Source: Spirochaetota bacterium
Lineage (GTDB): Bacteria > Spirochaetota > Spirochaetia > Treponematales > Rectinemataceae
Length of the DNA: 64,000 nucleotides
Assembly: GCA_029265615.1 (NCBI GenBank)
Contig: JAJUIB010000002.1
Location: 62,001 to 126,000, forward strand
Direction of reading: 5' to 3'
Shown here: positions 47,240 to 64,000 of the stretch, piece after piece
Position numbering within the stretch: position 1 is the first letter of the stretch
How the letters are laid out: the number at the start of each line of letters is the position of its first letter
Program-made: the position numbers and the translations under genes
The notes under the pieces: model-generated
Told to the model about the DNA's origin: nothing
Database searches by the model: none
The model's input: the letters and a program-made list of their open reading frames with translations, nothing else

Positions 47240-49045
47240 ATGGCAAAGGCTCAGGCGAAATACGACGAATCGAAGATCAAGACGCTCTCCTCCCTTGAGC
47301 ACATCCGCCTCCGCACGGGTATGTACATCGGACGGCTTGGCGACGGCTCGAACGCCGACGACGGCATCTACATCCTCCTCAAGGAGGTCGTCGATAACGC
47401 GGTCGACGAGTATATCATGGGCGCCGGGACGCGGATCGAGATACGCGTCGAGGGTGGCTCGGTCTCGGTGCGAGATTACGGGCGCGGTATTCCCTTGGGC
47501 AAGGTGATCGACTGCGTATCCACCATCAACACCGGAGCGAAGTACAACGACGACGTCTTTCAATTCTCCGTCGGTCTCAACGGCGTCGGCACTAAGGCGG
47601 TGAACGCGCTTTCCGAGCGCTTCCGCGTCGTGTCTCATCGCGAAGGCTCCTTTTTCGAGGCGGTCTTTGAACGCGGCGTCCTTGTCTCGAAGCGCGAGGG
47701 CAAGACGAGGGAAAAGGCCGGAACGCTTGTCGAGTTCACGCCCGATCGCGAGATATTCGGCGACTATGTATTCAACATGGAATTCGTCGAGCGCCGGGTT
47801 TGGAACTACGCCTATCTCAATTCGGGCCTGACGGTCGTCCTCAACGGCCGGGAATACGCCTCGAAAAACGGGCTCCTCGATCTCCTCGCCGAGGAGGTAG
47901 GCGATGGCGCGTTGTACGACATCGGATACTGGCGCGGTGACCGCATCGAGTTCGCCTTCACCCATCATGGCGAATACGGTGAAGAGTACTTCAGTTTTGT
48001 AAACGGCCAGCACACCTCGGATGGAGGGACGCACCTTTCAGCCTTCAGGGAAGGTTTTCTCAAGGCGGTGAACGAGTTCTTCAAGGCCTCTTATCGGGGC
48101 GAGGACGTGCGCGAGGGCATCGCTGCGGCCGTCGCGGTTAAGATCAAGGATCCGGTCTTTGAAAGCCAGACGAAGAACAAGCTTGGCAACTCGGATGTGA
48201 AGCCTTGGATCATGCAGGAGGTGAAGCGGGGGCTCGATGACTTCCTCAGGCGCAACCCCGCGGCCGCGAAGCGCCTCCAGGAGAAGATTGTCGCAAACGA
48301 GCGCCTCCGCACGGAGCTCAACGTGGTCAAAAAGGAGGCCAAGGAGGCGGCGAAGAAGATCGAGCTCAAGATTCCGAAGCTCAAGGACTGCAAGCGCCAC
48401 CTGGGCGACGGACCCGAAGGCGACGCGAGCATGATCTTCCTCACCGAAGGCCTTTCGGCGACAGGCTCCATCGTGAGTGCGCGCAACGTGATGACCCAGG
48501 CCGTTTTTTCGCTCCGGGGCAAGCCCGAGAACATGTACGCGCGCAAGCGGGCAGCGATCTACAAAAACGAGGAACTCTATAACATGATGATGGCGCTCGG
48601 GATCGAGAACGGCCTCGAGGGCCTCCGATACGGCAAGATCATCATCGCGACCGATGCCGACTACGACGGCTTCCACATCCGCAACCTCCTCCTCACCTTC
48701 TTCCTCACCTACTTCGAGGAACTCGTCACACAGGGCCGCGTGTACATCCTCGAGACGCCGCTTTTCCGCGTGCGCACCAAGAACGCGACGCGTTACTGCT
48801 ACAGCGCGAAGGAGCGCGACGAGGCCGTCGAGGAGCTCGGATCCGGCGCTGAGGTGACGCGGTTCAAGGGCCTTGGCGAGATCAATCCGAGTGAGTTTGG
48901 GCAGTTCATTGGCGAGGACATCCGCCTCGTGCGCGTCGACGTACAGACGCTCAAGGCCGTGCCCGAGGTGCTCGCCTTCTACATGGGCAAGAACACGCCC
49001 GAGCGCCGCGATTTCATCATGGCGAACCTCATCAACGACCTTTAG
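47240..49045 (+). CDS. parE: Type IIA topoisomerase subunit B (ParE-like)
   Basis: A 601-aa GHKL ATPase/TOPRIM protein. LEHIRLRTGMYIGRLGDGS and KEVVDNAVDEYIMG form the ATP site, GRGIPLGKV and GLNGVGTKAVNALS the lid. The TOPRIM domain has FLTEGLSATGS near residue 400, where most bacterial GyrB/ParE read EGDSA-GS; the catalytic Glu is kept. ATDADYDGFHIRNLLL carries the Asp residues. The length suits ParE rather than E. coli-type GyrB. It lies 8 bases before parC, with which it forms topoisomerase IV (or a second gyrase). Confidence 0.9.
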   Translation: MAKAQAKYDESKIKTLSSLEHIRLRTGMYIGRLGDGSNADDGIYILLKEVVDNAVDEYIMGAGTRIEIRVEGGSVSVRDYGRGIPLGKVIDCVSTINTGAKYNDDVFQFSVGLNGVGTKAVNALSERFRVVSHREGSFFEAVFERGVLVSKREGKTREKAGTLVEFTPDREIFGDYVFNMEFVERRVWNYAYLNSGLTVVLNGREYASKNGLLDLLAEEVGDGALYDIGYWRGDRIEFAFTHHGEYGEEYFSFVNGQHTSDGGTHLSAFREGFLKAVNEFFKASYRGEDVREGIAAAVAVKIKDPVFESQTKNKLGNSDVKPWIMQEVKRGLDDFLRRNPAAAKRLQEKIVANERLRTELNVVKKEAKEAAKKIELKIPKLKDCKRHLGDGPEGDASMIFLTEGLSATGSIVSARNVMTQAVFSLRGKPENMYARKRAAIYKNEELYNMMMALGIENGLEGLRYGKIIIATDADYDGFHIRNLLLTFFLTYFEELVTQGRVYILETPLFRVRTKNATRYCYSAKERDEAVEELGSGAEVTRFKGLGEINPSEFGQFIGEDIRLVRVDVQTLKAVPEVLAFYMGKNTPERRDFIMANLINDL

Positions 49046-49053
49046 GAAGACCG

Positions 49054-51405
49054 ATGGCCTACGTCAAGAAGCTCTTCAACGAGAATTTCCTCTACTACGC
49101 CTCGTACGTTATCAAGGACCGCGCGATACCCGACATCGACGACGGACTTAAGCCCGTCCAGCGCCGCATCCTCCATTCGCTGTTCGAGATGGACGACGGC
49201 AAGTTCCACAAGGTTGCCAACGTGGTCGGACACTGCATGAAGTACCATCCACATGGCGATGCCTCGATCTACTCCGCACTCGTCGTGCTCGCGAACAAGG
49301 AACTCTTCATCGACAAGCAGGGGAATTTCGGCAATCTCCTCACGGGCGACGAGGCGTCAGCGGCGCGGTACATCGAATGCCGCGCGACCCCCTTCGCCCG
49401 CGACGTGCTGTACAACCCCAAGACGACAAAGTACGAGGAGTCGTACGACGGCCGGAACCGCGAGCCGGTCGTCTTCCCCGCGAAGATACCGGTCCTCCTT
49501 ATGATTGGCGCCGAAGGCATCGCCGTCGGTATGAGCACGAGGATACTACCCCACAACCCCGTCGAGGTGCTCAAGGCCGAAATCGCCTGTCTCCAGGGCA
49601 AGAAATTCCAACTGCATCCGGACTTTCCAACGGGCGGCGTTGCCGACGTGTCGGAATACGCCGACGGCATGGGCAAGGTGCGCGTGCGTGCCAAGCTCGA
49701 TCTTTCGGATCCGAAGCGTATCGTTATCCGCGAGCTTCCCTACGGATCGACGACGGAGAGCCTCATAGCGAGCGTCGAGGCTGCCGCCAAGGCCGGCCGT
49801 ATCAAGATAGCCTCCATAAGCGATTTCACCACGGAGCGCGTCGAGATCGAGATACGACTCCAGCGCGGCGTCTACGCAAGCGATGTCGTGGACGCGCTCT
49901 ACGCTTTTACCGAATGCGAGCAATCGATATCGTGCAACTTTCTTGTCATTAAGGACGGCCAGCCGACCGCAATGACCGCGACCGAGGCTGTTCGGCATCA
50001 TGCTGACAAACTTCTCGGCATCCTTAAGGCTGAGCTCCAGATTGAGGAGCGGGAGCTTCTCGACGAGCTTCACGCGCGCACGCTCGAGCGCATATTTATC
50101 GAAGAGCGCGTCTACAAGGCCATCGAGACGAAAAAGACGCAAGAAGCGGTGATTAAGGCCGTGCTCGAAGGCCTTTCGCCCTTCAAGAAGGAGATACGCC
50201 GCGAGGTTACGCTCGAGGATGTCGAACGGCTCCTCAAGATACCGATCAGGCGCATATCGCTCTACGACATCGAAAAGGCCAAGGCGGAAGTGGAGCGTAT
50301 CAAGGCTCGTCTCAAAGAGGTTCGCGCCCATCTTGCCGACCTTGTGGGTTATGCCGTCGGCTGGCTCGAAGGTGTGAAAAAGCGGCTTGAACCCTCCTGG
50401 CCGCGGAGGACCGAGCTTTCAGGCTTCGAGCGCGTCGATGCGAAGGAGGTTGCGCGGCGCGACATCCCCCTTCGCTACGACTCCCAGACCGGTTATCTCG
50501 GAACGAGCGTGTCCACGGGCGACGCCCTGCTTCAGGTTTCGCCCTACGATAAGATTCTCGTCATAAGGCGGAGCGGCTTCTGGTCCGTCGTGCCCCTTCC
50601 CGAAAAGCTCTTTGTCGATCAGGGGATGCTCCACTGCGCTATCGCGGACAAGGATGCACTGGCGGAGGTCGTGTTCACGGTGGTTTACAAGGAGGCGGCG
50701 CACGGCTATCCCTGCATAAAGCGTTTCCGTATCGAGGGCTGGATCATGAACAAGGATTACCAGCTACTCCCGGATGGCGCGCAGGCGCTCTGGTTCACTG
50801 CGGCGCCCGCCTCCCCCTTCGCGGTTTCCTTTGTGCCCAAGGCCCGGCAGCGCGTGCAGGAGGAAACTTTCCGCGTAGAGGACTACGACGTGAAGGGCAT
50901 CAAGGCTGCGGGTGTGAGGCTTGCCGCCAAGGAGGTCCTTGCGGTCCGTGGCCCCGAGCTTGCGCCGGGAAGCGCCCGCACCGAGGCCGAGCTCTTTGCA
51001 CAGGGCGAGCCTGCGCCCCGGAAGGCTGCCGGGGCGAGGGCGAAACTGGCCGAAGCGGACGCAAGCGCTTCCTCTAGAACCGCTCAGGCGCCGCGCGCGA
51101 AGAAGTCCGCTTCGTCGGGATCCGACCCCGCGGTCTCCGCGACGCTCCCCGCGACGGCCCCCGCGACGGGGCGAAAGGCACCCTCAGGCGGCCTCCTTGC
51201 CGCGGCGGCGGCCAAGAAGGCCGTGGAGTCCGAGGCGGGCGCAGGTAAGCCTGCGGCGAGGAAGACCGCGACTTCGAAAAAGGCGGCCGCCGCGTCTTCG
51301 CCGCGAGCGTCTAAAGTAGCGTCCAAGGCGGACGCGTCCAAGACAGGCCGTACGGCTAAGGCCGCAGCCAAGGCCGCGCCGAAGGCGAAAAAAACGGGGA
51401 AATAG
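49054..51405 (+). CDS. parC: Type IIA topoisomerase subunit A (ParC-like) with Lys/Ala-rich tail
   Basis: A 783-aa cleavage subunit. The catalytic tyrosine is Y106 in ASAARYIECR; GLKPVQRRILHSLFEM and VGHCMKYHPHGDASIY are the winged-helix/tower landmarks. The C-terminal beta-propeller region is reduced (about 450-640). Residues 642-783 are low-complexity Ala/Lys/Ser (KKAAAASSPRASK, AKAAAKAAPKAKKTGK) and resemble histone-H1-like tails; they likely bind DNA. It is cotranscribed with parE. Confidence 0.92.
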   Translation: MAYVKKLFNENFLYYASYVIKDRAIPDIDDGLKPVQRRILHSLFEMDDGKFHKVANVVGHCMKYHPHGDASIYSALVVLANKELFIDKQGNFGNLLTGDEASAARYIECRATPFARDVLYNPKTTKYEESYDGRNREPVVFPAKIPVLLMIGAEGIAVGMSTRILPHNPVEVLKAEIACLQGKKFQLHPDFPTGGVADVSEYADGMGKVRVRAKLDLSDPKRIVIRELPYGSTTESLIASVEAAAKAGRIKIASISDFTTERVEIEIRLQRGVYASDVVDALYAFTECEQSISCNFLVIKDGQPTAMTATEAVRHHADKLLGILKAELQIEERELLDELHARTLERIFIEERVYKAIETKKTQEAVIKAVLEGLSPFKKEIRREVTLEDVERLLKIPIRRISLYDIEKAKAEVERIKARLKEVRAHLADLVGYAVGWLEGVKKRLEPSWPRRTELSGFERVDAKEVARRDIPLRYDSQTGYLGTSVSTGDALLQVSPYDKILVIRRSGFWSVVPLPEKLFVDQGMLHCAIADKDALAEVVFTVVYKEAAHGYPCIKRFRIEGWIMNKDYQLLPDGAQALWFTAAPASPFAVSFVPKARQRVQEETFRVEDYDVKGIKAAGVRLAAKEVLAVRGPELAPGSARTEAELFAQGEPAPRKAAGARAKLAEADASASSRTAQAPRAKKSASSGSDPAVSATLPATAPATGRKAPSGGLLAAAAAKKAVESEAGAGKPAARKTATSKKAAAASSPRASKVASKADASKTGRTAKAAAKAAPKAKKTGK

Positions 51406-52442: not shown

Positions 52443-55400
52443 ATGAAAGACGTATTCCAGTTTAGAGACTCAGTTATTCGAGAATATGAAAGTTTTTCAC
52501 GTAGCTTCACGACCATCGGGGCAGAGGACATACGCGAGTACGTCGACTCCGAATATGCGCTTGGGCGCTACTGGCCCGAGCCGCTCATTCAGATAAACCC
52601 GAGCTACAAAAAGGCATCTTCGGTACAAGAACTCGTCGCGGAAGGTGTGATCCATCCAGCCTGCGGCCATATCTTCAAGTCAGGAAAACCCGAAGGCAAG
52701 CCAAGAGACCTCATCTTATATAAGCATCAGATGGATGCCCTTGCGATCGCCAAGAAGAACGAACCCTATGTAGTGACGACTGGAACAGGCTCGGGTAAGA
52801 GCATCGCCTTCTTTCTACCGATAGTCGACCGAATCTTGCATGAAAAGGAATTGGGCGGGGGGCGTAGAACCCGTGCGATTATCATCTATCCCATGAACGC
52901 CTTGGCCAACAGCCAACTTGAGGAGCTTGGCAAGTTCCTTTATGACTATCCCGAAGAGGAAAAGCCATTCACTGCGGCGAGATATACGGGACAAGAGAGT
53001 CAAGAGGAGAGAAAGGCGATAGCGGATAACCCGCCTGACATTCTCCTCACTAACTTCATGATGCTCGAACTTCTCCTGACGCGCTATGACGAGACTGATC
53101 GCAAGGTAATCGATCATTGCCGAGGACTTCAGTTCCTCGTGCTCGACGAGCTTCATACCTATCGAGGACGCCAGGGAGCCGATGTTGCGCTTCTTGTGCG
53201 AAGGGTTCGCCAGCGTCTTGAAGCATCCGCAATGCTTTGCATCGGCACGTCGGCGACGATGTCGAATACAGGCAGTCTTCAAGACCAGCAAGCTACTGTC
53301 GCCCGCGTATCGAGCCTTTTATTCGGGCAAGATGTTCCTGCCGCTAATATTGTCTCGGAAACGCTTGATCAAGTGACTGACTCCACGCAGAGCCGCCAGA
53401 CAATCCTGGAGCGCCTTCCTGGCCGATTGGAAAATCCAATCTATCAATGGGCGGATATGGACGAGTTCAAGCGCGACCCTCTGGCTATATGGGTCGAGAC
53501 GACGCTCGGCATCGAGGTGAATGGTGTTTCCGCCCCCGCCCGCGCAAAACCTCTCAGCATGACCCAGGCGGCGGAGCGCCTGGCTCGCGATACTGGTTGC
53601 GAGGCTAAAACAGCCTATACCGCCTTACAAAACTTCCTCATAGCGGCACACTCCGTCGAGGATGCCGATGGGCGTAAGCCTTTCGCCTTCAAGCTACACC
53701 AGTTCATCTCCGGACCGGGTAAAGTCCTCATGACCCTTGAGCCTCCGGGGAAACGCTTCATTACAATGACAGCTCAGCGCTTCGCTCCTGGACGTGAGGA
53801 TGTATTTCTGTATCCAGCTTATTTTTGCCGTGAATGCGGACAAGAATACCATCCTGTAGAATTCTTGGATAACCGCTGGACCCCACGGGAAATCGATGCC
53901 CTGTTTCCGAATGACGCAGAGGACAGGTTCGGATTCCTTGTGCCTTCTGGGACAGACTTTGATTTCGATGGAAGCGTTGAAAGCCTGCCGGACTTTTGGA
54001 TAGAGCAGCGCTCCTCCGGTCCTCAAGTCAAACGCGAGTACTCAGCGTTCGTTCCCACAAAACTGCATCTCGACGAACGCGGCCAAGTCACGGCCTACGC
54101 GAATGGCAAGGGAACCGATTTCTGGTACATCCCGGGGCACATTCGATTCTGCCCGCGCTGCGGTATGGTTCATGAGCCGATGGGAAAGGACATCAACCGA
54201 CTATCCAGTCTTTCCGGAGAAGGACGCTCTTCGGCGACGACTATGATCACGATGAGCGTACTTAGGAATCTTTTCGCGGATGCCCCCGGCGCTGATGGCC
54301 TTGATCAACGCAAAATGCTCGGGTTTACGGATAATCGTCAGGATGCCGCGCTCCAGTCCGGACATTTCAACGACTTTGTGTTTTTAGTGACCTTGCGAGG
54401 GGGAATTGTCGGCGCGCTTCAAAAGAACGGGGGTGTCCTTACCGAAGATTCCATGCCCGAAGAGGTATTTAAGGCAATCGGCTTTGATCGAAACGATTAT
54501 GCGGCCAAGTGCGAGTACCTCAATAATCCCGATCTCTTTGGCCTGAATCTAGCGGAGGCCCAACGAGCTCTGAAGTTCGTTATCGGCTATCGCATCATCC
54601 GCGACTTTAGGAAAGGATGGCGTTTCAACAACCCTTCCCTCGACCAGCTCGGCCTTGTCGAAATCGCGTACGTTGGCATGGACGAGTACATCCGGACAGA
54701 ACGGTACTTCGAGCATGCCCACGACGCAATCAAGCTTCTTGAGCCGAATAAACGGAAAGAACTGTTTACGCTCGTCTTTACAGAAATGAGAAAGAACCTT
54801 TGCATCAATTCGCGCTTCCTCGATGCAGGTGAACAGGAGCGGGTGAAGACCAAAACATGGACTTCTCTCAAAGAGCGATGGGGATTCGCCGTCGACGAGA
54901 AGCTCTCGGTCACGCGTTACATGATTCTCAGTCAATTGCCAGATCGTCTAAATCGAAGCCGCGTTGATTACATCTCAGGCGGGGTTAGGTCTAGGCTGGT
55001 GCGCATCATAAAAAGATCCCCGCTGTGGAACGGGAGTCCTTTGGAAGGACACATACTACAGTGGAAGGATTCCGACGTCACAGAAATCGTAGAGTCGGTG
55101 CTTGAACTCGCACGTGATTACGGATTCGTCAAGGAAGTTCCGCTCGATCGAGACTTTTACGGATGGTGCCTTGACTCGCAAGCTCTCGAGTGGCGCCTTT
55201 GCACGACGTCTGAACATACGAAAAGAGCAGCCCAGAACGAGTTCTTCCGCAATATGTATATCAGCGCTGCTGCAACTCTTTCGCTTCCTACCCATAACCT
55301 GTTCGACTATGAATCACACGAGCATACAGCGCAGGTTGATAATGACGACCGCATGATCCTCGAAGCGCGGTTCCGTTTCACACAGAAAGACAAGGACTGG

Positions 55401-57719
55401 TGGAAAGCTGAACGTTATCAGGGTGAGCTTGAGCGTCTACCCGTATTATTCTGTTCGCCTACGATGGAACTCGGCGTCGACATCTCTTCTCTCAACACGG
55501 TATACATGCGGAACGTTCCTCCAACACCCGCCAACTACGCCCAGCGAAGCGGGCGGGCAGGACGCTCTGGGCAACCGGCTCTCGTTATCACGTATTGCGC
55601 GGCTCAAAGTCCTCACGATCAGTGGTTTTTCGCAAATGCCCCCGAGATGGTCCATGGCATCGTCAAGGCGCCGACCCTCGACTTATCCAACAGGGAACTC
55701 GTCGATAGTCATATCGACGCCATCTGGCTCTCCAATCTCTCCGTCAAGATCGAATCAAACATATCGTCGATTCTCAAGCTTGATGAAATCGGATATCCAG
55801 TCGCGCCGGAGCTCATGTCAGCTCTCAAGGATCCAGCGGCGAGCAATCGAGCGCTCGAGCAGGCGAAGGTAATCGCCGTTGAACTGCGTAAGACACTCTC
55901 AGGCGATGGCGCATGGCTTTCCGATGCACATATTGAACGGATCATCGCCCAGGCTCCCGAAAATTTCGACAAAGCCTTCAATCGCTGGCGCAACCTCTAT
56001 GCCTCGACGCTCAGGCAAATGGAGCTGGCAGACGCCATAATTCGCAGCCATGCTACACGCCCCATAGACAGAGACAACGCAACGCGCCGCTACACCGACG
56101 CCAAGCGACAACTTGACGTCCTACTAAGTTCTCGCGCCACCCAGAACTCCGACTTCTACACCTACCGCTATCTCGCCGGGCAAGGCTTCCTTCCCGGCTA
56201 TAACTTCCCGCGGCTACCGCTCATGGCCTGGATCCCGGCGAGAGGAAATCGCGTCGGTGGGGAGCGCGATTCCGGCTCGATGGTCTCGCGCCCCCGCTTC
56301 CTCGGCATCTCCGAGTTCGGACCGAGAAGCCTGATCTACCATGACGGGCGCATGTACCAAGTCAAGAAAGCGAAGCTCGGCTCAGGGTCGATGATCGGAA
56401 GCGGGGACGGGAACAGACTGCCCACGATACACGCCCTCGTGTGTCCCGCCTGCGGTCACGGACATTTCGGTACGGTCGACGATCCTGAGGTTGTAGTACC
56501 CCGATGCGAGAACTGCGGAGCCGAGCTTACAGGCAATGCCCGCATCGCCGACCTGTTCAAGATAGAGACCGTCGAGACCGAGGCTGTCGAGCGCATCTCC
56601 GTGAATGACGAGGAAAGACAACGGCAAGGGTACGACATCCAAACCATGTTCCGACTCGATCGGGACGAGAGCGGGAACGCGGATGTGACTCGATCGATCA
56701 TAAGCCTTGACGGCACGACGATAGGCGATCTCGTTTACTCGCCCGCAGCCTTGCTGTGGCGCATCAATCGCGGCTGGAAACGGCGCAAGAACAAGAATGT
56801 CCTCGGTTTTTATATTGATCCGATCTCCGGCTGGTGGCGCGCCGAGGAAGATGAGGAAGGCATGAGTGAGGGGGATGCAGAATCAGCCCGCACCAAAGTC
56901 CCCCCTCAGCGGATTGTGCCCTTCGTCGAGGATTACCGCAACATCCTCATTCTGACCCTCGCCGGAACACCGAGCAAAGAAGCCATGGCGACCCTGCAAG
57001 CCAGCCTCAAGCGCGGCATCGAGCAGACCTACCAAATCGAAGAATCGGAGCTCGCTGCCGAGCCGCTTCCCCTAGAAAGCGACAGGAGGCACATCCTCTT
57101 TTATGAGGCCGCCGAGGGAGGGGCGGGCGTGCTGACGAGATTGGCCCGAGACAAGAACGAGCTAGCGGCAGTTGCCCGCATGGCCCTCCAGATCATGCAT
57201 TACCGTATCCCCGAGCGCCTCGACACAGTAGAGGACCTCATCGACGAGCAGAAAGACAAAAAGCGCGACTCCTGCATCGCGGCATGCTACCAGTGTCTTC
57301 TCTCATACTACAATCAGCCGGAACACCTCATCCTCGATAGGAGGAACGCGGAGGCTCTTGGTATTCTCATCGCCCTCTCGAGGGGGAATGTTTCAATACA
57401 GGAACCACAGATTGATAGAGGCGATGCCGGTAGCGCGGAACGTGGCGACACGGAATTCGCCGATTTTCTCAAGGAAAGGGGATATCGGTGCCCCGATACG
57501 TTTATGTACCCGTTCATGGACGGGAAGCACAAGGCTGACGCAATCTATAAAAGCGATAAAGTTGCTGTCTTCTTTACCTCTCCGGCCGAGGAAGCCCGAA
57601 AATACTTGCGAGACCGCGGCTTTTATGTTGCCGTGCTCGGTGAGAGCCCGGAGCAATGGAATAGCTACCTCGCATCCAATCCAGAAACACTACCCCGTAC
57701 CAAGGAAAAAGAACAATGA
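52443..57719 (+). CDS. YprA-type DEAD/DEAH helicase with DUF1998 region (DISARM/ARMADA-like)
   Basis: A 1758-aa superfamily 2 helicase. Walker A TGTGSGKS is at 113-120, DELH at 235-238, and motif VI QRSGRAGRSGQ near 1034. Two Cys pairs lie in the middle (FCRECGQEY near 461, FCPRCGMVH near 569) and more later (VCPACGHG and CENCGAEL near 1332-1360). The C-terminal DUF1998 region has LFYEAAEGGAGVLTRLA near 1553 and CIAACYQCLLSYYNQPEH near 1611. The last 80 residues (YPFMDGKHKADAIYK to the end) look like a nuclease-fold remnant. In DISARM, DrmA (helicase) and DrmB (DUF1998) are separate; here one chain spans both, as in YprA/Druantia-like proteins. AGGAG precedes ATG 52443. The start of the gene is clearly AT-richer than the housekeeping region. 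Confidence 0.85.
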   Translation: MKDVFQFRDSVIREYESFSRSFTTIGAEDIREYVDSEYALGRYWPEPLIQINPSYKKASSVQELVAEGVIHPACGHIFKSGKPEGKPRDLILYKHQMDALAIAKKNEPYVVTTGTGSGKSIAFFLPIVDRILHEKELGGGRRTRAIIIYPMNALANSQLEELGKFLYDYPEEEKPFTAARYTGQESQEERKAIADNPPDILLTNFMMLELLLTRYDETDRKVIDHCRGLQFLVLDELHTYRGRQGADVALLVRRVRQRLEASAMLCIGTSATMSNTGSLQDQQATVARVSSLLFGQDVPAANIVSETLDQVTDSTQSRQTILERLPGRLENPIYQWADMDEFKRDPLAIWVETTLGIEVNGVSAPARAKPLSMTQAAERLARDTGCEAKTAYTALQNFLIAAHSVEDADGRKPFAFKLHQFISGPGKVLMTLEPPGKRFITMTAQRFAPGREDVFLYPAYFCRECGQEYHPVEFLDNRWTPREIDALFPNDAEDRFGFLVPSGTDFDFDGSVESLPDFWIEQRSSGPQVKREYSAFVPTKLHLDERGQVTAYANGKGTDFWYIPGHIRFCPRCGMVHEPMGKDINRLSSLSGEGRSSATTMITMSVLRNLFADAPGADGLDQRKMLGFTDNRQDAALQSGHFNDFVFLVTLRGGIVGALQKNGGVLTEDSMPEEVFKAIGFDRNDYAAKCEYLNNPDLFGLNLAEAQRALKFVIGYRIIRDFRKGWRFNNPSLDQLGLVEIAYVGMDEYIRTERYFEHAHDAIKLLEPNKRKELFTLVFTEMRKNLCINSRFLDAGEQERVKTKTWTSLKERWGFAVDEKLSVTRYMILSQLPDRLNRSRVDYISGGVRSRLVRIIKRSPLWNGSPLEGHILQWKDSDVTEIVESVLELARDYGFVKEVPLDRDFYGWCLDSQALEWRLCTTSEHTKRAAQNEFFRNMYISAAATLSLPTHNLFDYESHEHTAQVDNDDRMILEARFRFTQKDKDWWKAERYQGELERLPVLFCSPTMELGVDISSLNTVYMRNVPPTPANYAQRSGRAGRSGQPALVITYCAAQSPHDQWFFANAPEMVHGIVKAPTLDLSNRELVDSHIDAIWLSNLSVKIESNISSILKLDEIGYPVAPELMSALKDPAASNRALEQAKVIAVELRKTLSGDGAWLSDAHIERIIAQAPENFDKAFNRWRNLYASTLRQMELADAIIRSHATRPIDRDNATRRYTDAKRQLDVLLSSRATQNSDFYTYRYLAGQGFLPGYNFPRLPLMAWIPARGNRVGGERDSGSMVSRPRFLGISEFGPRSLIYHDGRMYQVKKAKLGSGSMIGSGDGNRLPTIHALVCPACGHGHFGTVDDPEVVVPRCENCGAELTGNARIADLFKIETVETEAVERISVNDEERQRQGYDIQTMFRLDRDESGNADVTRSIISLDGTTIGDLVYSPAALLWRINRGWKRRKNKNVLGFYIDPISGWWRAEEDEEGMSEGDAESARTKVPPQRIVPFVEDYRNILILTLAGTPSKEAMATLQASLKRGIEQTYQIEESELAAEPLPLESDRRHILFYEAAEGGAGVLTRLARDKNELAAVARMALQIMHYRIPERLDTVEDLIDEQKDKKRDSCIAACYQCLLSYYNQPEHLILDRRNAEALGILIALSRGNVSIQEPQIDRGDAGSAERGDTEFADFLKERGYRCPDTFMYPFMDGKHKADAIYKSDKVAVFFTSPAEEARKYLRDRGFYVAVLGESPEQWNSYLASNPETLPRTKEKEQ

Positions 57720-60562
57720 ACGCAAGCGCCTTCAGTCCCGGAACCCTCGTCCGCGCACGCGGACGGGAATGGGTCGTTCAGCCCAATGCGCGCGGCGCGG
57801 ACACAGGTGAGGTACTGGGAGATGCCCTGTACTTGCGCCCTCTTGGCGGCGCGGATGCCGATATTCAGGTTATTCTCCCGGCGCTCGAGGCAAGCCCGAT
57901 CGAGGCGGCTGCCTTTCCTCTGCCCGATGCATCGAAACCGGGCGCCCATGATTCGGCCTTACTCCTGCGCGATGCGCTCAGGCTCAAGCTACGCGCGGCG
58001 GCTGGACCATTCCGGAGCTTCGGTCGAATAGCCGTAGAACCGCGCGCCTATCAGCTCGTGCCCCTCCTCATGGCTCTCAAGCAGAAGACCGTCCGCCTGC
58101 TCATCGCCGACGATGTCGGCATAGGCAAGACCATCGAGGCGGCCCTTATCGTGCGGGAACTGCTCGACCGCGCGGAAATCAGCCGCTTCGCGGTGCTCTG
58201 CCCACCGCACCTCGTTGATCAGTGGGTCGATGAGCTTTCCGAGCGTTTCCATATACCCGCCGTGGGGCTTACCTCTTCCAGCGTGCGGCGGCTCGAGAAC
58301 ATGGTCCCTCGCGGGATTTCGCTCTTCGAGCATTTCCCCGCCGTCGTCATGAGCCTTGACTATATCAAGAGCGAAAGCCACAAGAACTATTTTCTCTCGA
58401 GCGCGCCCGAGCTCGTGGTCGTCGACGAGGCGCACACCTGCACCATAGCCGGGCAGAACCGCCAGCGCCGCTACGAGCTCCTCAAGGACCTCGTCGCGGA
58501 TCCCGAGCGGCATCTCATCATGCTGACCGCCACGCCGCACTCGGGCGACGACGCGGCATTCCACAACCTGCTCGGTCTACTCGATCCAGAATTCTCGAGC
58601 CTGGCAGGCACCGCGGTCAGGGCGGACGACCCCGTGCGCCAAAGACTCGCGCGGCATTTTGTGCAGAGAAGACGAAAGGACATCGATGAGTGGAAGGACT
58701 CGAGCGTCTTCCCCAGGCGGATGGTTAAGGAGATAACCTACACCCTGTCGGGCAAGTGGGGAGCTTTCTTCGAATCGGTACGCGACTACTGCCTCGGCCT
58801 AGCCACAAAGGCCGAACGCGAAACGGGCGAAGGCGCGCGCATGATGTGGTACGCGACGCTGGCCCTCCTGCGCTGCGCCGCCTCGTCGCCAGCTGCCGCC
58901 CACCGGGCGCTTACCGCCCGCCTTGAGGGAACGGCGGAAGAACTCGCCGCCCTGGCGGACGAGGAGCGCATCGACGACGGGAACGCCGACGCGCTCGGAT
59001 CGAATGACCAGGAGCCGCCCGCCGGCGTAGGAGACATCGAACTTCTCGAAGGACTCATCGCGGAGGCAGACAGGCTCCGCGGGACAGAGGGAGACCCCAA
59101 GCTCGCCTCCCTCATCGCCCATCTTGAGTCGCTCTCCGCGGAGAAAGGGAAGGACTGGCGGCCCGTCGTGTTCTGCCGCTACATCGCGACGGCGGTCTAC
59201 GTCGGCGAGGAAGTGAAGAAGCGCCTTGACGGACATACGGTGGACGTGATCACCGGTGAGCTTACCCCCGAGGAACGCGAAGAACGTATCGACCTCCTCA
59301 TCCAGTCCGAAAGGCCCATTCTCGTCGCCACCGACTGCCTTTCGGAAGGCATCAACCTGCAGTGCGGCTTCAACGCCGTCGTCCACTACGACCTTGCCTG
59401 GAACCCGACCAGGCACGAACAGCGCGAAGGGCGCGTGGACCGCTTTGGCCAGAAGTCGCCCGAAGTTCGCTGTGCGATGATCTACGGTCAGGACAACCCC
59501 GTTGACGGCTTTATCCTGAACGTCATACTCAGGAAGGCCCAGACCATTAGGGAGGAGCTCGGCGTCCTTGTGCCGATGCCAGAGGACGGAAAGCGCATAC
59601 AGCAGGCCCTCGTTAAGGCGGCGCTCATGAAGACCGCGGACAAAAACGGCGGCGCGCTACAACAGGCTTTCGACTTTGGGGGCGAGTTTTCTGAGGTAGA
59701 CCTTGCACCCATGGAGACCGCCTGGGAGGACGCCATGCAAAAGGCCAAGGCCAACCGCACGGTCTTCGCCCAGCGCAGGCTCAAGCCCGAGGACGTGATG
59801 CCCGAGTGGAACAAGCAGGTGAGCGCCCTCGGAGAGTCATGTGAAGTGCGCCGCTTCGTGGAAGCTGCGCTCATCCGGCTCAAGGCGCCCCTGGAAACGC
59901 AGGGGAAAGACAGCTTCCGCTTCATACCGGCGCTACTCCCCCCCTTGCTAAAAGAACGCATGGCTGCCGAAGGATTCGTTCGGCCCCTCTCGCTGGGCTT
60001 CACCTATCCGGCGGACACGGGAAGCACATTCATACACCGGAGCCATCCCATCGTATCCCTTCTTGCGGACCAGGTGCTGGAAAGCGCCCTTTCAGGCGAT
60101 ACGGCCGCCTCGGAAATCCTGGCATCCCGCGCCGCGGCATTCGAGACCGCATCGGTTCGGGAGACGACCACCATCTTCCTCGTAAGGCTTAGGCACCAGC
60201 TCGACGTTGTGCGCTCAGGGGTACGGCGCGAGCTCATGGCGGAGGAGGCGATCGCCGCCGCTCTTGCGGGGCGGGAAGCGCCGCGTTTCTTGGCCGATGC
60301 CGATGTCGAGAGCCTCCTTGACGCGCACCCCAGCGGGAATCTCGGCAAGGATGCGATGATCCGCGAGCTTAGAGAAAGCATCGCGTGGTTCGAAGGTCAC
60401 CGCGAGGCCTTCGAGCGCCTGGCCGCGGAACGAGCGCAGGCCCTGCTTGCGGATCACCGGCGCGTGCGCGACGCGGCGGGCGACACGGGGCAGTACAGCG
60501 TCACCGCCTGTCTCCCTGTGGACCTCATCGGCGTGTACGTCCTCCTTCCGAGCGAAATCTAG
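57716..60562 (+). CDS. SNF2-family helicase of a DISARM-like system (DrmD-like)
   Basis: A 948-aa SNF2-type ATPase. Walker A DVGIGKT is at 133-139 within LLIADDVGIGKTIEAALI, DEAH at 237-240 in VVVDEAHTCT, MLTATPHSG is motif III, and the C-terminal lobe has NLQCGFNAVVHYDLAWNPTRHEQREGR then VDRFGQ. About 350 further residues have no motif I recognise. DISARM class 1 contains such a protein (DrmD) beside an adenine methyltransferase, and the gene here overlaps the large helicase (ATGA) and lies 11 bases before a methyltransferase. A DNA-translocating role in distinguishing or attacking phage DNA is inferred. Confidence 0.85.
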   Translation: MNASAFSPGTLVRARGREWVVQPNARGADTGEVLGDALYLRPLGGADADIQVILPALEASPIEAAAFPLPDASKPGAHDSALLLRDALRLKLRAAAGPFRSFGRIAVEPRAYQLVPLLMALKQKTVRLLIADDVGIGKTIEAALIVRELLDRAEISRFAVLCPPHLVDQWVDELSERFHIPAVGLTSSSVRRLENMVPRGISLFEHFPAVVMSLDYIKSESHKNYFLSSAPELVVVDEAHTCTIAGQNRQRRYELLKDLVADPERHLIMLTATPHSGDDAAFHNLLGLLDPEFSSLAGTAVRADDPVRQRLARHFVQRRRKDIDEWKDSSVFPRRMVKEITYTLSGKWGAFFESVRDYCLGLATKAERETGEGARMMWYATLALLRCAASSPAAAHRALTARLEGTAEELAALADEERIDDGNADALGSNDQEPPAGVGDIELLEGLIAEADRLRGTEGDPKLASLIAHLESLSAEKGKDWRPVVFCRYIATAVYVGEEVKKRLDGHTVDVITGELTPEEREERIDLLIQSERPILVATDCLSEGINLQCGFNAVVHYDLAWNPTRHEQREGRVDRFGQKSPEVRCAMIYGQDNPVDGFILNVILRKAQTIREELGVLVPMPEDGKRIQQALVKAALMKTADKNGGALQQAFDFGGEFSEVDLAPMETAWEDAMQKAKANRTVFAQRRLKPEDVMPEWNKQVSALGESCEVRRFVEAALIRLKAPLETQGKDSFRFIPALLPPLLKERMAAEGFVRPLSLGFTYPADTGSTFIHRSHPIVSLLADQVLESALSGDTAASEILASRAAAFETASVRETTTIFLVRLRHQLDVVRSGVRRELMAEEAIAAALAGREAPRFLADADVESLLDAHPSGNLGKDAMIRELRESIAWFEGHREAFERLAAERAQALLADHRRVRDAAGDTGQYSVTACLPVDLIGVYVLLPSEI

Positions 60563-60573
60563 GAGATTAAAAA

Positions 60574-63500
60574 ATGAGACGCAGCAACCTGAACGCCCTG
60601 GGATTCGATACGCTTCGCCTCGAGGGCTCGCTCTTTGTGGCCGACTACCTGGAAAAAGCCGCCGCGGGCCTGGCGAGCGGGCAAACCGCGTCCGACTATC
60701 GCGTGCCCCGCGGCCTACGCCTCAATGACGAGTACGGCCGCGCCTTCCAAATAGCCCAGGCCATCTGGAACCAGTATGAGGCCGCGCCGTCGAGGCTGGA
60801 AAGTTCGGTCGTCGAGCTCTTCCGCGACGCCTTGGGGTATTCGCCCATCGAAAAAGTAGCGCCGGTAGCCGTGGGCGAGCGCCGTTTCCCCATCGGCCAC
60901 CTTGCGCTCGGAAAGATTCCCCTGGTCATCGGCAGCCCCGGCTCAGACCTTGACGCGAGCGAGACGCGCTTCTCGGTGGAAGGCTCAGGCTCGCGCAGGA
61001 AAAGCCCCTTCCAGATGGCGCAGGAGTATCTCAACGCCTGCGCAGCCGGCGCGTCCTCGGGCGCGTCCTCGGGCGCGTCCTGCCAGGCTCCGCGCTGGGC
61101 CATTGTCACAAACGGCGAGCGCATCCGCCTCCTTCGCGCCTCTCCCGCCATGGCGCGGCCTTCATACCTCGAGTTCGACCTTGGGACCATCATGCGCGAA
61201 AAGCGCTTCCCCGAGTTCACCATGCTCTGGCGTCTCCTGCACGCGAGCAGGGCCGGTACGGATAAGGACGACTCGGTCTGGGATCTGTGGCGGCTGGAAG
61301 GCGAAAACCAGGGCACCCGCGTGCGCGAAGGGCTCAAGGCCGGCGTCACCCAGGCACTCCTGTCCCTTGGTTCGGGCTTCCTGCGGTATGAAGGGACGGG
61401 CAACGCGGCCCTGCGCGCGGCCCTCGATTCAGGCACCTTGGGTCGGGAAGCCTACTTCCAGGAACTCCTACGGCTCATCTACCGCTTCCTCTTCGTCTTT
61501 ACCATCGAGGAGCGCGGCCTTATCCACGCCCACCCGGGCGACGATGCGCGCGCGGCCTCACACGAGCTCTACGAGCGGGGCTACTCGCTCAGGCGCCTTA
61601 GGGACAAGGCGCTCCGCCGTTCTGGCTACGACCGCCACGGCGACCTCTGGGAAGGCGTCGTCATACTCTTCCGCTCTCTCGGGAAGGGAGAAGAAGCCCT
61701 GGACCTACCCGCCTTGGGCGGCCTCTTCGCTCCCGACCAATGCCCTCATATCGACGCCTGCGGGCTTTCCAACTACGACCTCCTCTGTGCCATGGAGAGC
61801 CTCCGCTGGGCGGTCGCGGGCAACGCGCGCACCCTCGTCGACTACAAGAACATGGACTCCGAGGAACTCGGCTCGGTGTACGAGAGCCTCCTCGAGCTCG
61901 TGCCGGTCGTCGACCTGGCCGCGCGCACTTTCGGCTTTATCGGCCTGGGCGGCGAAGAAGGATCGACGGCAGGCAACGCGCGCAAGACCTCAGGGAGCTA
62001 CTACACGCCGGATTGCCTCGTGCAGGAACTCATCAAGAGCACCCTGGAGCCGGTGATCGAAGCGAGGTTGGGGGCCTCGCCTGCGGCGACCGGGCTATCC
62101 GCTCCAAGTCCTCGCCATCTGGAGCGCGCTCCAGATGGCTCCGGGCTTTCCGCTTCTATCCCTGGCCCGGAAGAAACCGCGCGGCGCATCCTCTCCATCA
62201 CCGTGATCGATCCCTCCTGCGGCTCGGGGCACTTCCTCCTGGCCGCGGGCCGGAAGCTTGCCGAGGCCCTTGCTCTTGCCCGGAGCGAAGACGGGTCGGT
62301 GCTCGAGGCCGACTACCGCCACGCCCTGCGCGAGGTGGTCGCCCACTGCCTCTACGGCGTGGACCTTAACCCCCTGGCGGTGGAACTGGCGCGGATGAGC
62401 CTCTGGCTCGAAGGCTACGAGCCGGGCCGGCCCCTCTCATTCATCGACCACCACATCCGCTGCGGCAATTCGCTGGTGGGCGTCCTCGATCTCGATATGC
62501 TCAAAGCGGGCATCCCCGACGGGGCCTACGTAGCCCTCTCGGGAGACGAGGCGGCGGTCGTGAAGCGCTACAAAAAGCGCAACGCCGACGAAAAAAAATC
62601 CTCAGGCCAGGGCCAGCTCTTCGAAGATCCCATCCAGAGCGCCGAGGCGGGCATTGTGGCGCTGAAGTGGCGGCTCGAGAACATTCCGGACAACGACCTG
62701 GAGGCCATCGGCCGCAAGCGGGCCGCCTTCGAAGCCCTCCTTGCCAGCCCCGAATACCAGCGCGTGAAGCTGGCCTCCGACATCTACACGGCGGCCTTCT
62801 TCTGCGACAAGCGCGAAGGCCTTCCCATACCCACGACAGCGGATGTGTCCCTGGCCGCCTCCGGCCACGCCGAGTCGTCGGCCTCGCGGGGCGTCAACGC
62901 CCTGGCGCGTACTATCGCGGAGCGCACCCGCTTTTTCCACTGGAGGCTCGAGTTCCCCGAAGTCTTCGCCAAGGGCGGCTTCGACTGCGTTCTGGGGAAC
63001 CCGCCCTGGGAACGCATCAAACTTCAGGAGGAAGAATTTTTCGCTACCCGTCACACAGGGATCGCGCATGCCAAGAACAAGGCAGAGCGCGAAAAGCTCA
63101 TAGCATCGCTTTCGAATGGAACCCTCTATGACCAAGCCCTGTACGCCGAGTTCCTCCGGGCGCGCAAGGCTGCCGAAGCCGCCAGCGTCTTTGCCCATAT
63201 CAAGGGCGAAGAGAGAGGCAGGTATCCCTTGACCGGCGTGGGGGACGTGAACACCTACGCCCTCTTTGCCGAGACCATCCTGGGACTTACGCGGAGCGAG
63301 GGCCGCGCCGGCTTTATCGTGCCTTCGGGCATCGCCACCGACGACTCCACCAAGGCCTTCTTCGCCCATATCACGAGTAAGGGGAAGCTCGTCTCGCTCT
63401 TCGACTTTGAAAATCGCGAAGGTTTATTCCCCGATGTCGATAGCCGCATGAAATTCTGCCTCCTCACCCTCGGTGCGGCGAGCATGGCCAGTCTCGCCTT

Positions 63501-64000
63501 CTTCCTTACGAATACGAGCCAGCTTGCCGACGAACGCAGGCGCTTTTGCCTCCGCTCCGACGAGTTCGCCCTCCTCAACCCCAATACCCTCACCTGCCCG
63601 GTATTCCGTTCGGCCAAGGATGCGGAGATCACGGCGAAGATATACCGGCGCGTGCCGGTGTTGATGAGGGAGGGAGGGAGTGGGGAGATAGAAGAGGAAT
63701 CGTATACTGGTGGTCTTCCCTCTCCTGGCCACTCCCTACTCCCTCACCACAATCCTTGGGGCATCAGTTTCCAGGCTATGTTCCACATGGCCAACGACTC
63801 AAACCTCTTCCATTCCAGCCCCGCTCCCGACCGCCTACGCCTCTACGAAGCCAAGATGATCCACCAGTTCGATCACCGCTGGGCGACGTACGAGGGAGGA
63901 GGGAGTAGGGAAATAGGGAATAGGGAGATAGGGGAAAGTAAGGGTACAGGCGATCTTCCCCCTCCTGACTCCTCCCTCCTCCCGCCTGGCTCTTCTCTCC
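60574..64000 (+). CDS. N6-adenine DNA methyltransferase, Eco57I/DrmMI-like (runs off the window)
   Basis: An open frame from ATG 60574 (AGGAG upstream) to the window end, at least 1142 codons. The SAM motif DPSCGSGHFL is at 546-555 and the catalytic NPPW at 809-812, with the frame GNPPWERIK typical of Eco57I and DISARM DrmMI enzymes. A large N-terminal region (1-520) precedes. TSGSYYTPDCLVQELI just ahead of the SAM motif is the usual entry to the domain. Several repetitive inserts are read in frame: GASSGASSGAS near 160-170, a 26-bp palindrome near residue 515, and GGGAGTA-type blocks near 1032-1060 and after 1107. It should methylate host DNA to mark self. The C-terminus is outside the window. 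Confidence 0.85.
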   Translation, partial: MRRSNLNALGFDTLRLEGSLFVADYLEKAAAGLASGQTASDYRVPRGLRLNDEYGRAFQIAQAIWNQYEAAPSRLESSVVELFRDALGYSPIEKVAPVAVGERRFPIGHLALGKIPLVIGSPGSDLDASETRFSVEGSGSRRKSPFQMAQEYLNACAAGASSGASSGASCQAPRWAIVTNGERIRLLRASPAMARPSYLEFDLGTIMREKRFPEFTMLWRLLHASRAGTDKDDSVWDLWRLEGENQGTRVREGLKAGVTQALLSLGSGFLRYEGTGNAALRAALDSGTLGREAYFQELLRLIYRFLFVFTIEERGLIHAHPGDDARAASHELYERGYSLRRLRDKALRRSGYDRHGDLWEGVVILFRSLGKGEEALDLPALGGLFAPDQCPHIDACGLSNYDLLCAMESLRWAVAGNARTLVDYKNMDSEELGSVYESLLELVPVVDLAARTFGFIGLGGEEGSTAGNARKTSGSYYTPDCLVQELIKSTLEPVIEARLGASPAATGLSAPSPRHLERAPDGSGLSASIPGPEETARRILSITVIDPSCGSGHFLLAAGRKLAEALALARSEDGSVLEADYRHALREVVAHCLYGVDLNPLAVELARMSLWLEGYEPGRPLSFIDHHIRCGNSLVGVLDLDMLKAGIPDGAYVALSGDEAAVVKRYKKRNADEKKSSGQGQLFEDPIQSAEAGIVALKWRLENIPDNDLEAIGRKRAAFEALLASPEYQRVKLASDIYTAAFFCDKREGLPIPTTADVSLAASGHAESSASRGVNALARTIAERTRFFHWRLEFPEVFAKGGFDCVLGNPPWERIKLQEEEFFATRHTGIAHAKNKAEREKLIASLSNGTLYDQALYAEFLRARKAAEAASVFAHIKGEERGRYPLTGVGDVNTYALFAETILGLTRSEGRAGFIVPSGIATDDSTKAFFAHITSKGKLVSLFDFENREGLFPDVDSRMKFCLLTLGAASMASLAFFLTNTSQLADERRRFCLRSDEFALLNPNTLTCPVFRSAKDAEITAKIYRRVPVLMREGGSGEIEEESYTGGLPSPGHSLLPHHNPWGISFQAMFHMANDSNLFHSSPAPDRLRLYEAKMIHQFDHRWATYEGGGSREIGNREIGESKGTGDLPPPDSSLLPPGSSL
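61049..61082 (+). repeat. 12-bp tandem repeat in the methyltransferase gene
   Basis: GGCGCGTCCTCG occurs twice exactly (61049-61060, 61061-61072), followed by a partial third copy. The unit is 12 bases, so changes in copy number keep the frame; it encodes GASS. Confidence 0.85.
62114..62139. repeat. 26-bp perfect palindrome inside the methyltransferase gene
   Basis: Each half is GCCATCTGGAGCG or its complement, without a spacer. It sits in a Ser/Ala/Pro/Gly-rich segment just before the conserved SAM motif, in what appears to be an inserted loop. Confidence 0.9.
63667..63759. repeat. Inverted GGGAGTGG element A in the methyltransferase gene
   Basis: A purine-rich 5' part (GAGGGAGGGAGGGAGTGGGG) and a pyrimidine-rich 3' part form a hairpin. 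GGGAGTGG (63676-63683) pairs with CCACTCCC (63729-63736), and further imperfect pairing extends outward. It is read in frame between RRVPVLMRE and NPWGISF. Confidence 0.75.
63892..64000. repeat. Inverted GGGAGTA-type element B in the methyltransferase gene
   Basis: GGGAGGAGGGAG (63894-63905) pairs perfectly with CTCCCTCCTCCC (63972-63983). The left arm continues as short TAGGGA-like units. It begins right after HRWATYE, is read in frame, and is similar in style to the element 200 bases upstream. The right edge may lie beyond the window. Confidence 0.75.

What the first reader, a model, noticed from the sequence alone, without database searches (positions are those of the whole stretch)
61049..64000. 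Several in-frame palindromic or repetitive insertions inside one methyltransferase gene
Four elements occur: a 12-bp tandem (61049), a 26-bp perfect palindrome (62114), and two GGGAGTA-style inverted elements (63667 and 63892) only about 200 bases apart. All are read in frame and lie at what look like loops between conserved blocks (for example between VPVL and NPWG, and after HRWATYE). This resembles protein-coding mobile palindromes such as those of Rickettsia. Repeats in a modification gene could also allow phase-variable length or on/off switching.
Basis: partly seen in the sequence, partly recalled or inferred. Interest (0 to 1): 0.75.

Follow-up and report, generated by a model that had tools for sequence, protein, structure and literature searches.

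The report
Coding palindrome insertions in defence methyltransferase
Short dispersed hairpin repeats of two families, both found here in other bacteria, have been spliced in frame into floppy loops of one large phage-defence methyltransferase gene, and distant relatives of this gene have independently caught other hairpin repeats in some of the same loops.

Summary
The four elements are real, at the stated coordinates, and all are translated in one intact 1,472-aa ORF whose end lies beyond the window. The gene is a PglX/DrmMI-like Eco57I-type adenine methyltransferase in a defence island. Against 80 homologues (plus 4 more from the same order) the elements are insertions of +14, +29, about +18 and +30 aa. 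The nearest relative (74% identical) lacks the last three and has a shorter, different loop at the first.

The 61048 tandem is an ordinary 12-bp duplication. The 62114 palindrome is the core of a longer dispersed repeat (GGGCTATCCGCTNCAA...TTTCCGCTNCTATCCC) that is intergenic in Bacteroidota and in a genome of the same order; a 57%-identical homologue carries it at the same site with different hairpin cores. The 63667 and 63892 elements are two copies of one inverted G-rich heptamer element dispersed in related families. None has another copy in its own genome.

Homologues in Thalassocella, Plasticicumulans, Gallionella, Dokdonella, HdN1 and a Verrucomicrobiaceae MAG carry other coding hairpins, partly at the same loops. 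So this is Rickettsia-RPE-like capture of palindromes: not an RPE, not a repeat family of this genome, and not supported as a phase-variation switch.

The parts
60574..64000 (+). Recipient gene: PglX/DrmMI-like Eco57I-type adenine methyltransferase, 1,472 aa (continues past the window to G000:C20:126992)
   Evidence: Open ORF; Pfam Eco57I E 5.8e-23; PADLOC DrmMI E 5.2e-74; structure nearest PglX/BrxX 8c45, DrdV, MmeI
61048..61081 (+). E1: 12-bp tandem, 2.8 copies (GASS repeats), +14 aa in a loop
   Evidence: TRF 100% match; the aligned stretch is 24 aa in nearly all homologues, 38 in this protein; pLDDT below 50 at residues 164-169
62068..62172 (+). E2: whole palindromic repeat insertion, +29 aa: hairpin 1 (TCGCC-TGC-GGCGA), conserved block CCGGGCTATCCGCTCCAAGTCCTCGCC, hairpin 2, conserved block CTCCGGGCTTTCCGCTTCTATCCCTGGCCCGG
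   Evidence: Alignment; same element intergenic in G335, G764, G784, G808; same site in homologue L268/G438
62114..62139 (.). E2 core: perfect 26-bp palindrome
63665..63750 (+). E3: inverted G-rich heptamer-type element, about +18 aa between VPVL and NPWG; four G-tracts on the coding strand at 63668-63685
   Evidence: pLDDT below 50 at residues 1030-1078
63891..64000 (+). E4: second copy of the E3-type element (ends about 12 bases past the window), +30 aa after HRWATY; five G-tracts on the coding strand from 63894
   Evidence: of the three forward frames only the gene's frame is free of stops

Best explanation
E2, E3 and E4 are in-frame insertions of dispersed palindromic repeats into permissive loops of a large, horizontally mobile defence methyltransferase. 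E2 is one copy of a REP-like repeat with two conserved blocks and variable hairpin cores. E3 and E4 are two copies, perhaps one derived from the other, of an inverted G-rich heptamer repeat. Shown: they are insertions, they are translated in one open frame, they fall in stretches predicted with low confidence between ordered blocks, and the repeat families exist as dispersed, where checked intergenic, copies in other genomes but not in this one. Inferred: they landed while the gene was in another host (possibly in families f3 or f5 of the same order) or were brought by recombination with such DNA; only in-frame, stop-free insertions at tolerant loops survived because the enzyme stayed under selection. 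E1 is a separate slippage duplication. How the repeats move (recombination, RAYT-like transposition, other) is not shown.
For: 80 homologues lack the four inserts; the sister sequence L165 (74% identical, support 1.0) lacks E2-E4 and has a shorter, different loop at E1. E2: pattern found in 1 other genome of 296 in the phylum and 3 of 247 of the Bacteroidota group, reversed-pattern control 0, all these copies intergenic; 71 copies of its left block in G764 against 0 in control. G438 carries the element at the same site with different hairpin cores, while L165, G088, G616 and L166 lack it. E3/E4: homologous to each other; the heptamer half matches 14 genomes of families f5 and f3 at E below 1e-3, none of the own family; a G036 copy is an intergenic inverted element. 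Same process elsewhere: coding CCCTC-type hairpins in L173 (twice), L188, L203 and L206, whose genomes hold 12 to 52 copies of the hairpin pattern with control 0. Insert stretches have low pLDDT.
Against: No second copy of any element in the own genome, so recent transposition here is not supported. Composition gives no sign of recent transfer: GC, GC3 and codon usage of the gene are typical for this genome. E4 alone does not fold better than shuffles, and low-complexity G-rich DNA makes its matches weaker evidence. The E2 search pattern was drawn from this sequence and from a remembered motif, though its reversed control gave zero. No target-site duplications were identified.
Confidence: 0.8

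Rival explanations
1. The repeats are a phase- or length-variation device: slippage in E1 or in the heptamers of E4 changes loop length or switches the frame, varying methylation.
For: E1 is a perfect 12-bp tandem; 7-bp units are not a multiple of 3; the gene is a DNA methyltransferase.
Against: Only 2.8 copies in E1 and 12 bp keeps the frame; E4 units are impure, 7 and 8 bp mixed; homologues carry unrelated hairpins rather than tandem tracts at the E4 site. No variants could be examined.
Confidence: 0.06
2. The loops are simply fast-evolving, low-complexity linkers, and the palindromes are chance features of GC-rich coding DNA.
For: The same loops vary in length in many homologues; coding hairpins found in neighbouring ORFs match chance (15 seen, 13.8 expected).
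Against: E2 matches a dispersed repeat in another phylum over its two conserved blocks; E3 and E4 are copies of each other; methyltransferase homologues hold 23 hairpins with arms of 10 or more against 7.6 +/- 2.4 in codon shuffles. It remains the right reading for E1.
Confidence: 0.1
3. The inserts were kept because they do something: loop extensions near the target-recognition part that change specificity, or coding-strand G-quadruplexes and hairpins that tune translation.
For: E3 and E4 sit C-terminal to the catalytic NPPW motif in a PglX-like fold; both hold four or more G-tracts on the coding strand; the loop after HRWATY was hit by different repeats in unrelated hosts.
Against: No conservation of insert sequence between lineages; the insert stretches are predicted with low confidence; 156 G4 motifs occur genome-wide, so they are not rare.
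Confidence: 0.12
4. E2 is an ancestral insertion shared by this gene and the G438 homologue, lost in L165, G088, G616 and L166, with hairpin cores replaced afterwards (a variant of the best explanation that differs only on the history of E2).
For: Same site and the same conserved blocks and edges in both.
Against: The tree places G438 in another clade, so several losses are needed against two gains; the hairpin cores are unrelated in sequence.
Confidence: 0.3

Closest known systems
Rickettsia palindromic elements (RPE); also Wolbachia palindromic elements and in-frame ERIC/Correia fusions (reviews PMC10969869, PMC2229807)
   Same: Short palindromic repeats that lie in frame inside conserved protein genes, with the protein still open and presumably made.
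   Different: RPEs are multi-copy in their own genome, these are single or double and only in this gene; here two unrelated families sit in one gene, and the recipient family is hit repeatedly across phyla.
G-rich heptameric repeats GGGAATC of Xanthomonas and GGGGA(T/C)T of Nostoc (PMC4692102)
   Same: G-rich heptamer units, G-quadruplex-capable, often in convergent inverted pairs; the E3/E4 relatives in families f5 and f3 are of this kind.
   Different: Units here are GGGARTA and impure; no copies elsewhere in the own genome; here they are translated inside a conserved enzyme.
REP/BIME-type intergenic palindromes
   Same: E2 relatives are short, dispersed, intergenic, with conserved blocks around hairpins.
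   Different: I could not match the sequence to a published family (exact-string search of the paper library found none relevant); no RAYT transposase association tested.
PglX/BrxX, DrmMI and type IIG Eco57I-family methyltransferases
   Same: Fold and motifs (DPSCGSGHF, NPPW) of the recipient enzyme.
   Different: The solved structures are only distant relatives (9-13% identity); the recipient lies with a DruE-like helicase, a DpdE-like SNF2 helicase and McrBC-like genes.

Membership tests
Rickettsia palindromic element (RPE) | Sequence homology to a described RPE family | not tested
   No RPE sequences were compared; relatives found are in Bacteroidota and in genomes of the same order.
Rickettsia palindromic element (RPE) | Several copies dispersed in the same genome | tested here: not met
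   More than 99.9% of the genome searched; no second copy.
Rickettsia palindromic element (RPE) | In-frame insertion into a conserved protein gene, absent in homologues | tested here: met
REP-like dispersed palindrome (for E2) | Multiple dispersed copies, intergenic, with hairpin potential | tested here: met
   Met in G764, G784, G808 and G335; not in the own genome.
REP-like dispersed palindrome (for E2) | Associated RAYT transposase | not tested
   Not searched.
G-rich heptamer repeats of the Xanthomonas/Nostoc type (for E3, E4) | Heptamer units starting with GGG, often as convergent inverted pairs | tested here: met
   units are impure.
Phase-variable simple sequence repeat | Pure tandem tract whose unit shifts the frame | tested here: not met
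   E1 is pure but 12 bp with 2.8 copies; E4 is impure.
Phase-variable simple sequence repeat | Length variants within a population | not testable with these tools
   No reads or strains available.
PglX/DrmMI-like adenine methyltransferase | N6-adenine MTase motifs and fold | tested here: met

The most novel reading that the evidence does not exclude
Certain loops of this defence methyltransferase family, above all the one after HRWATY, are genuine capture sites where whatever palindromic repeat the current host carries is inserted and kept, because the inserts help the enzyme diversify its DNA recognition or regulation as it moves between phyla.
Probability: 0.12. Interest if true: 0.75.

Novelty: new variant of a known kind. 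Interest (0 to 1): 0.5.

Why it matters
In-frame palindromic insertions have been described mainly from Rickettsiales and for a few enterobacterial and Neisseria repeats. Here one defence-gene family shows them from at least four unrelated repeat families, in hosts of the window's own order and in proteobacterial and verrucomicrobial hosts, partly at the same loops. Foreign repeats left in a gene may also act as labels of former hosts, which would make the travel history of a mobile defence gene testable.

Tried and rejected
Own-genome copies of E1-E4: none. Pattern GGGARTAGGGARTAGGG in the own genus and family: none. E2 pattern in viral contigs: none. Composition as a sign of recent transfer: the gene is typical for the genome. 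A suspected fifth element at L008:8510-8560 (PILPPPHYS) is a conserved motif, not an insertion, and the linker at L008:8680-8770 is shared with L165, so both were dropped. Sequence search of solved structures with the whole protein: no hit. Exact-string literature search for the E2 blocks: nothing relevant. A search centred on a locus id was not accepted by the tool and was made with the genome handle that a later search gave for that locus. The excess of hairpins in methyltransferase genes was tested after seeing inserts, and some of the 23 hairpins are those inserts, so its p of 0.0009 is only indicative.

Full report
Observation. All four elements exist as described and are read in frame. 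The window ends inside the gene; the contig shows one open frame of 1,472 aa. The gene is an Eco57I-type adenine methyltransferase, best PADLOC match DrmMI, structurally nearest PglX/BrxX, DrdV and MmeI. It sits in a defence island with a DruE-like helicase, a DpdE-like SNF2 helicase and McrBC-like genes.

Insertions or conserved residues? I fetched 80 homologues from many phyla and aligned them. Counting the same flanking residues, at E1 nearly all have 24 aa where this protein has 38. At E2 it is mostly 27 against 56, at E3 mostly 37 to 40 (some 46 to 49) against 58, at E4 mostly 38 to 46 against 74. The sister sequence L165, a Treponema MAG, lacks E2, E3 and E4 and has a shorter and different loop at E1. 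In an AlphaFold2 model of residues 1-1142 (mean pLDDT 81.3) the insert stretches are among the least confident parts: 164-169, 511-518 and 1030-1078 fall below 50; the last also reflects truncation of the model, and E4 is cut by it. In the L165 model (mean 89.5) the E4 site (residues about 630-638) lies in a local dip (block mean 74), while the short native loop at the E3 site is well ordered.

Copies in the own genome. I took more than 99.9% of the genome as stretches and searched it: none of E1-E4 has a second copy.

E2. The palindrome is only the centre. The insert reads hairpin 1, block CCGGGCTATCCGCTCCAAGTCCTCGCC, hairpin 2 (the 26-bp palindrome), block CTCCGGGCTTTCCGCTTCTATCCCTGGCCCGG. 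A pattern of the two blocks with a free core hit, of 296 genomes of the phylum, only this genome (once) and G335 (twice, both intergenic). Of 247 genomes drawn from the phylum of a Chlorobiaceae MAG (Bacteroidota in GTDB, by my knowledge) it hit three (G764, G784, G808), all intergenic. The reversed control pattern gave zero. The left block with up to two mismatches occurs 71 times in G764, control zero. The homologue in G438 (57% identical in the search, another family of the order) carries the same blocks at the same site with unrelated hairpin cores. In a tree G438 lies in a different clade, and L165, G088, G616 and L166 have no such insert, so two gains are simpler than one gain with several losses, but a shared origin or recombination is not excluded.

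E3 and E4. They align to each other over nearly their whole length (local score 48, best of 300 shuffles 23) and are read in the same frame. In E4 only the gene's frame is free of stops among the three forward frames. The heptamer half of E4 matches 14 other genomes of the order at E below 1e-3 (12 in family f5, 2 in f3), none in the own family; other matches are weaker or to the CT-rich half and may be low complexity. In G036 such an element is an intergenic inverted repeat between flagellar-type genes (gene naming is by eye). The nearest described kind is the G-rich heptamer repeat of Xanthomonas and Nostoc, which in Xanthomonas also forms convergent inverted pairs and is quadruplex-capable (PMC4692102). 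Both E3 and E4 have four or more G-tracts on the coding strand.

E1 is a plain tandem duplication in a loop where L182 and L165 also have extra residues.

The same process in homologues. L173 (Thalassocella) has CCCCTCTCCC-GCT-GGGAGAGGGG (GTT in the second) twice in its copy of the gene; L188, L203 and L206 have relatives of that hairpin; L208 (HdN1) has an insert read NRALSEVEG; L222 has a long hairpin (z = -6.5). The genomes of L173, L188, L203 and L206 hold 12, 52, 16 and 26 copies of the hairpin pattern, control zero. The loop after HRWATY was hit in this gene, in L173, in L208 and, by a GCTCGC-TACAA-GCGAGC hairpin, in G438. That the NRALSEVEG insert is a dispersed repeat of its genome was not tested. 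Over all homologues, hairpins with arms of 10 or more number 23 in the methyltransferase genes against 7.6 expected from codon shuffles, while other ORFs of the same loci show 15 against 13.8. That test was made after the fact and includes the inserts themselves.

Interpretation. The best reading is capture of host palindromic repeats in permissive loops of a mobile gene, the same kind of event as Rickettsia palindromic elements (reviews PMC10969869 and PMC2229807), with the difference that the repeats are foreign to the present genome and come from two families. An earlier host is inferred, not shown; composition of the gene is typical of the genome. Phase variation is not supported, and a functional role of the inserts is open.

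Noticed in passing
window 47240-51402 and 52443-64000, L008:8989-14536: A defence island (DruE-like helicase, DpdE-like SNF2 helicase, this methyltransferase, McrB/McrC-like genes, HEC-01-like ATPase) lies directly after gyrase/topoisomerase IV subunit genes; the DruE-like and McrB-like genes have unusually low GC for the genome while the methyltransferase and SNF2 genes do not.
   Followed up: partly
L284:1501-1564, L285:1501-1565, L286:1501-1563, L259 and L260 about 1501-1560: A dispersed repeat with conserved blocks GGGCTATCCGCTNCAA and TTTCCGCTNCTATCCC around variable cores, abundant in one genome (71 left-block copies in G764); I found no paper with these strings.
   Followed up: partly
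L188:8305-8340 and L206:8350-8385: Two related homologues carry CCCTCGCCC-type hairpins at the same site (FPQIF/FPQVF...GFDV).
   Followed up: no
L165 against the window protein, residues about 790-900: Identity between the two sister proteins drops to 0.53 there while the flanking regions are 0.71-0.76 and other regions reach 0.95; could be a local exchange or an assembly flaw.
   Followed up: no
L222:6973-7050: A Verrucomicrobiaceae homologue carries a long coding hairpin (z = -6.5) of a further, unidentified repeat family.
   Followed up: no
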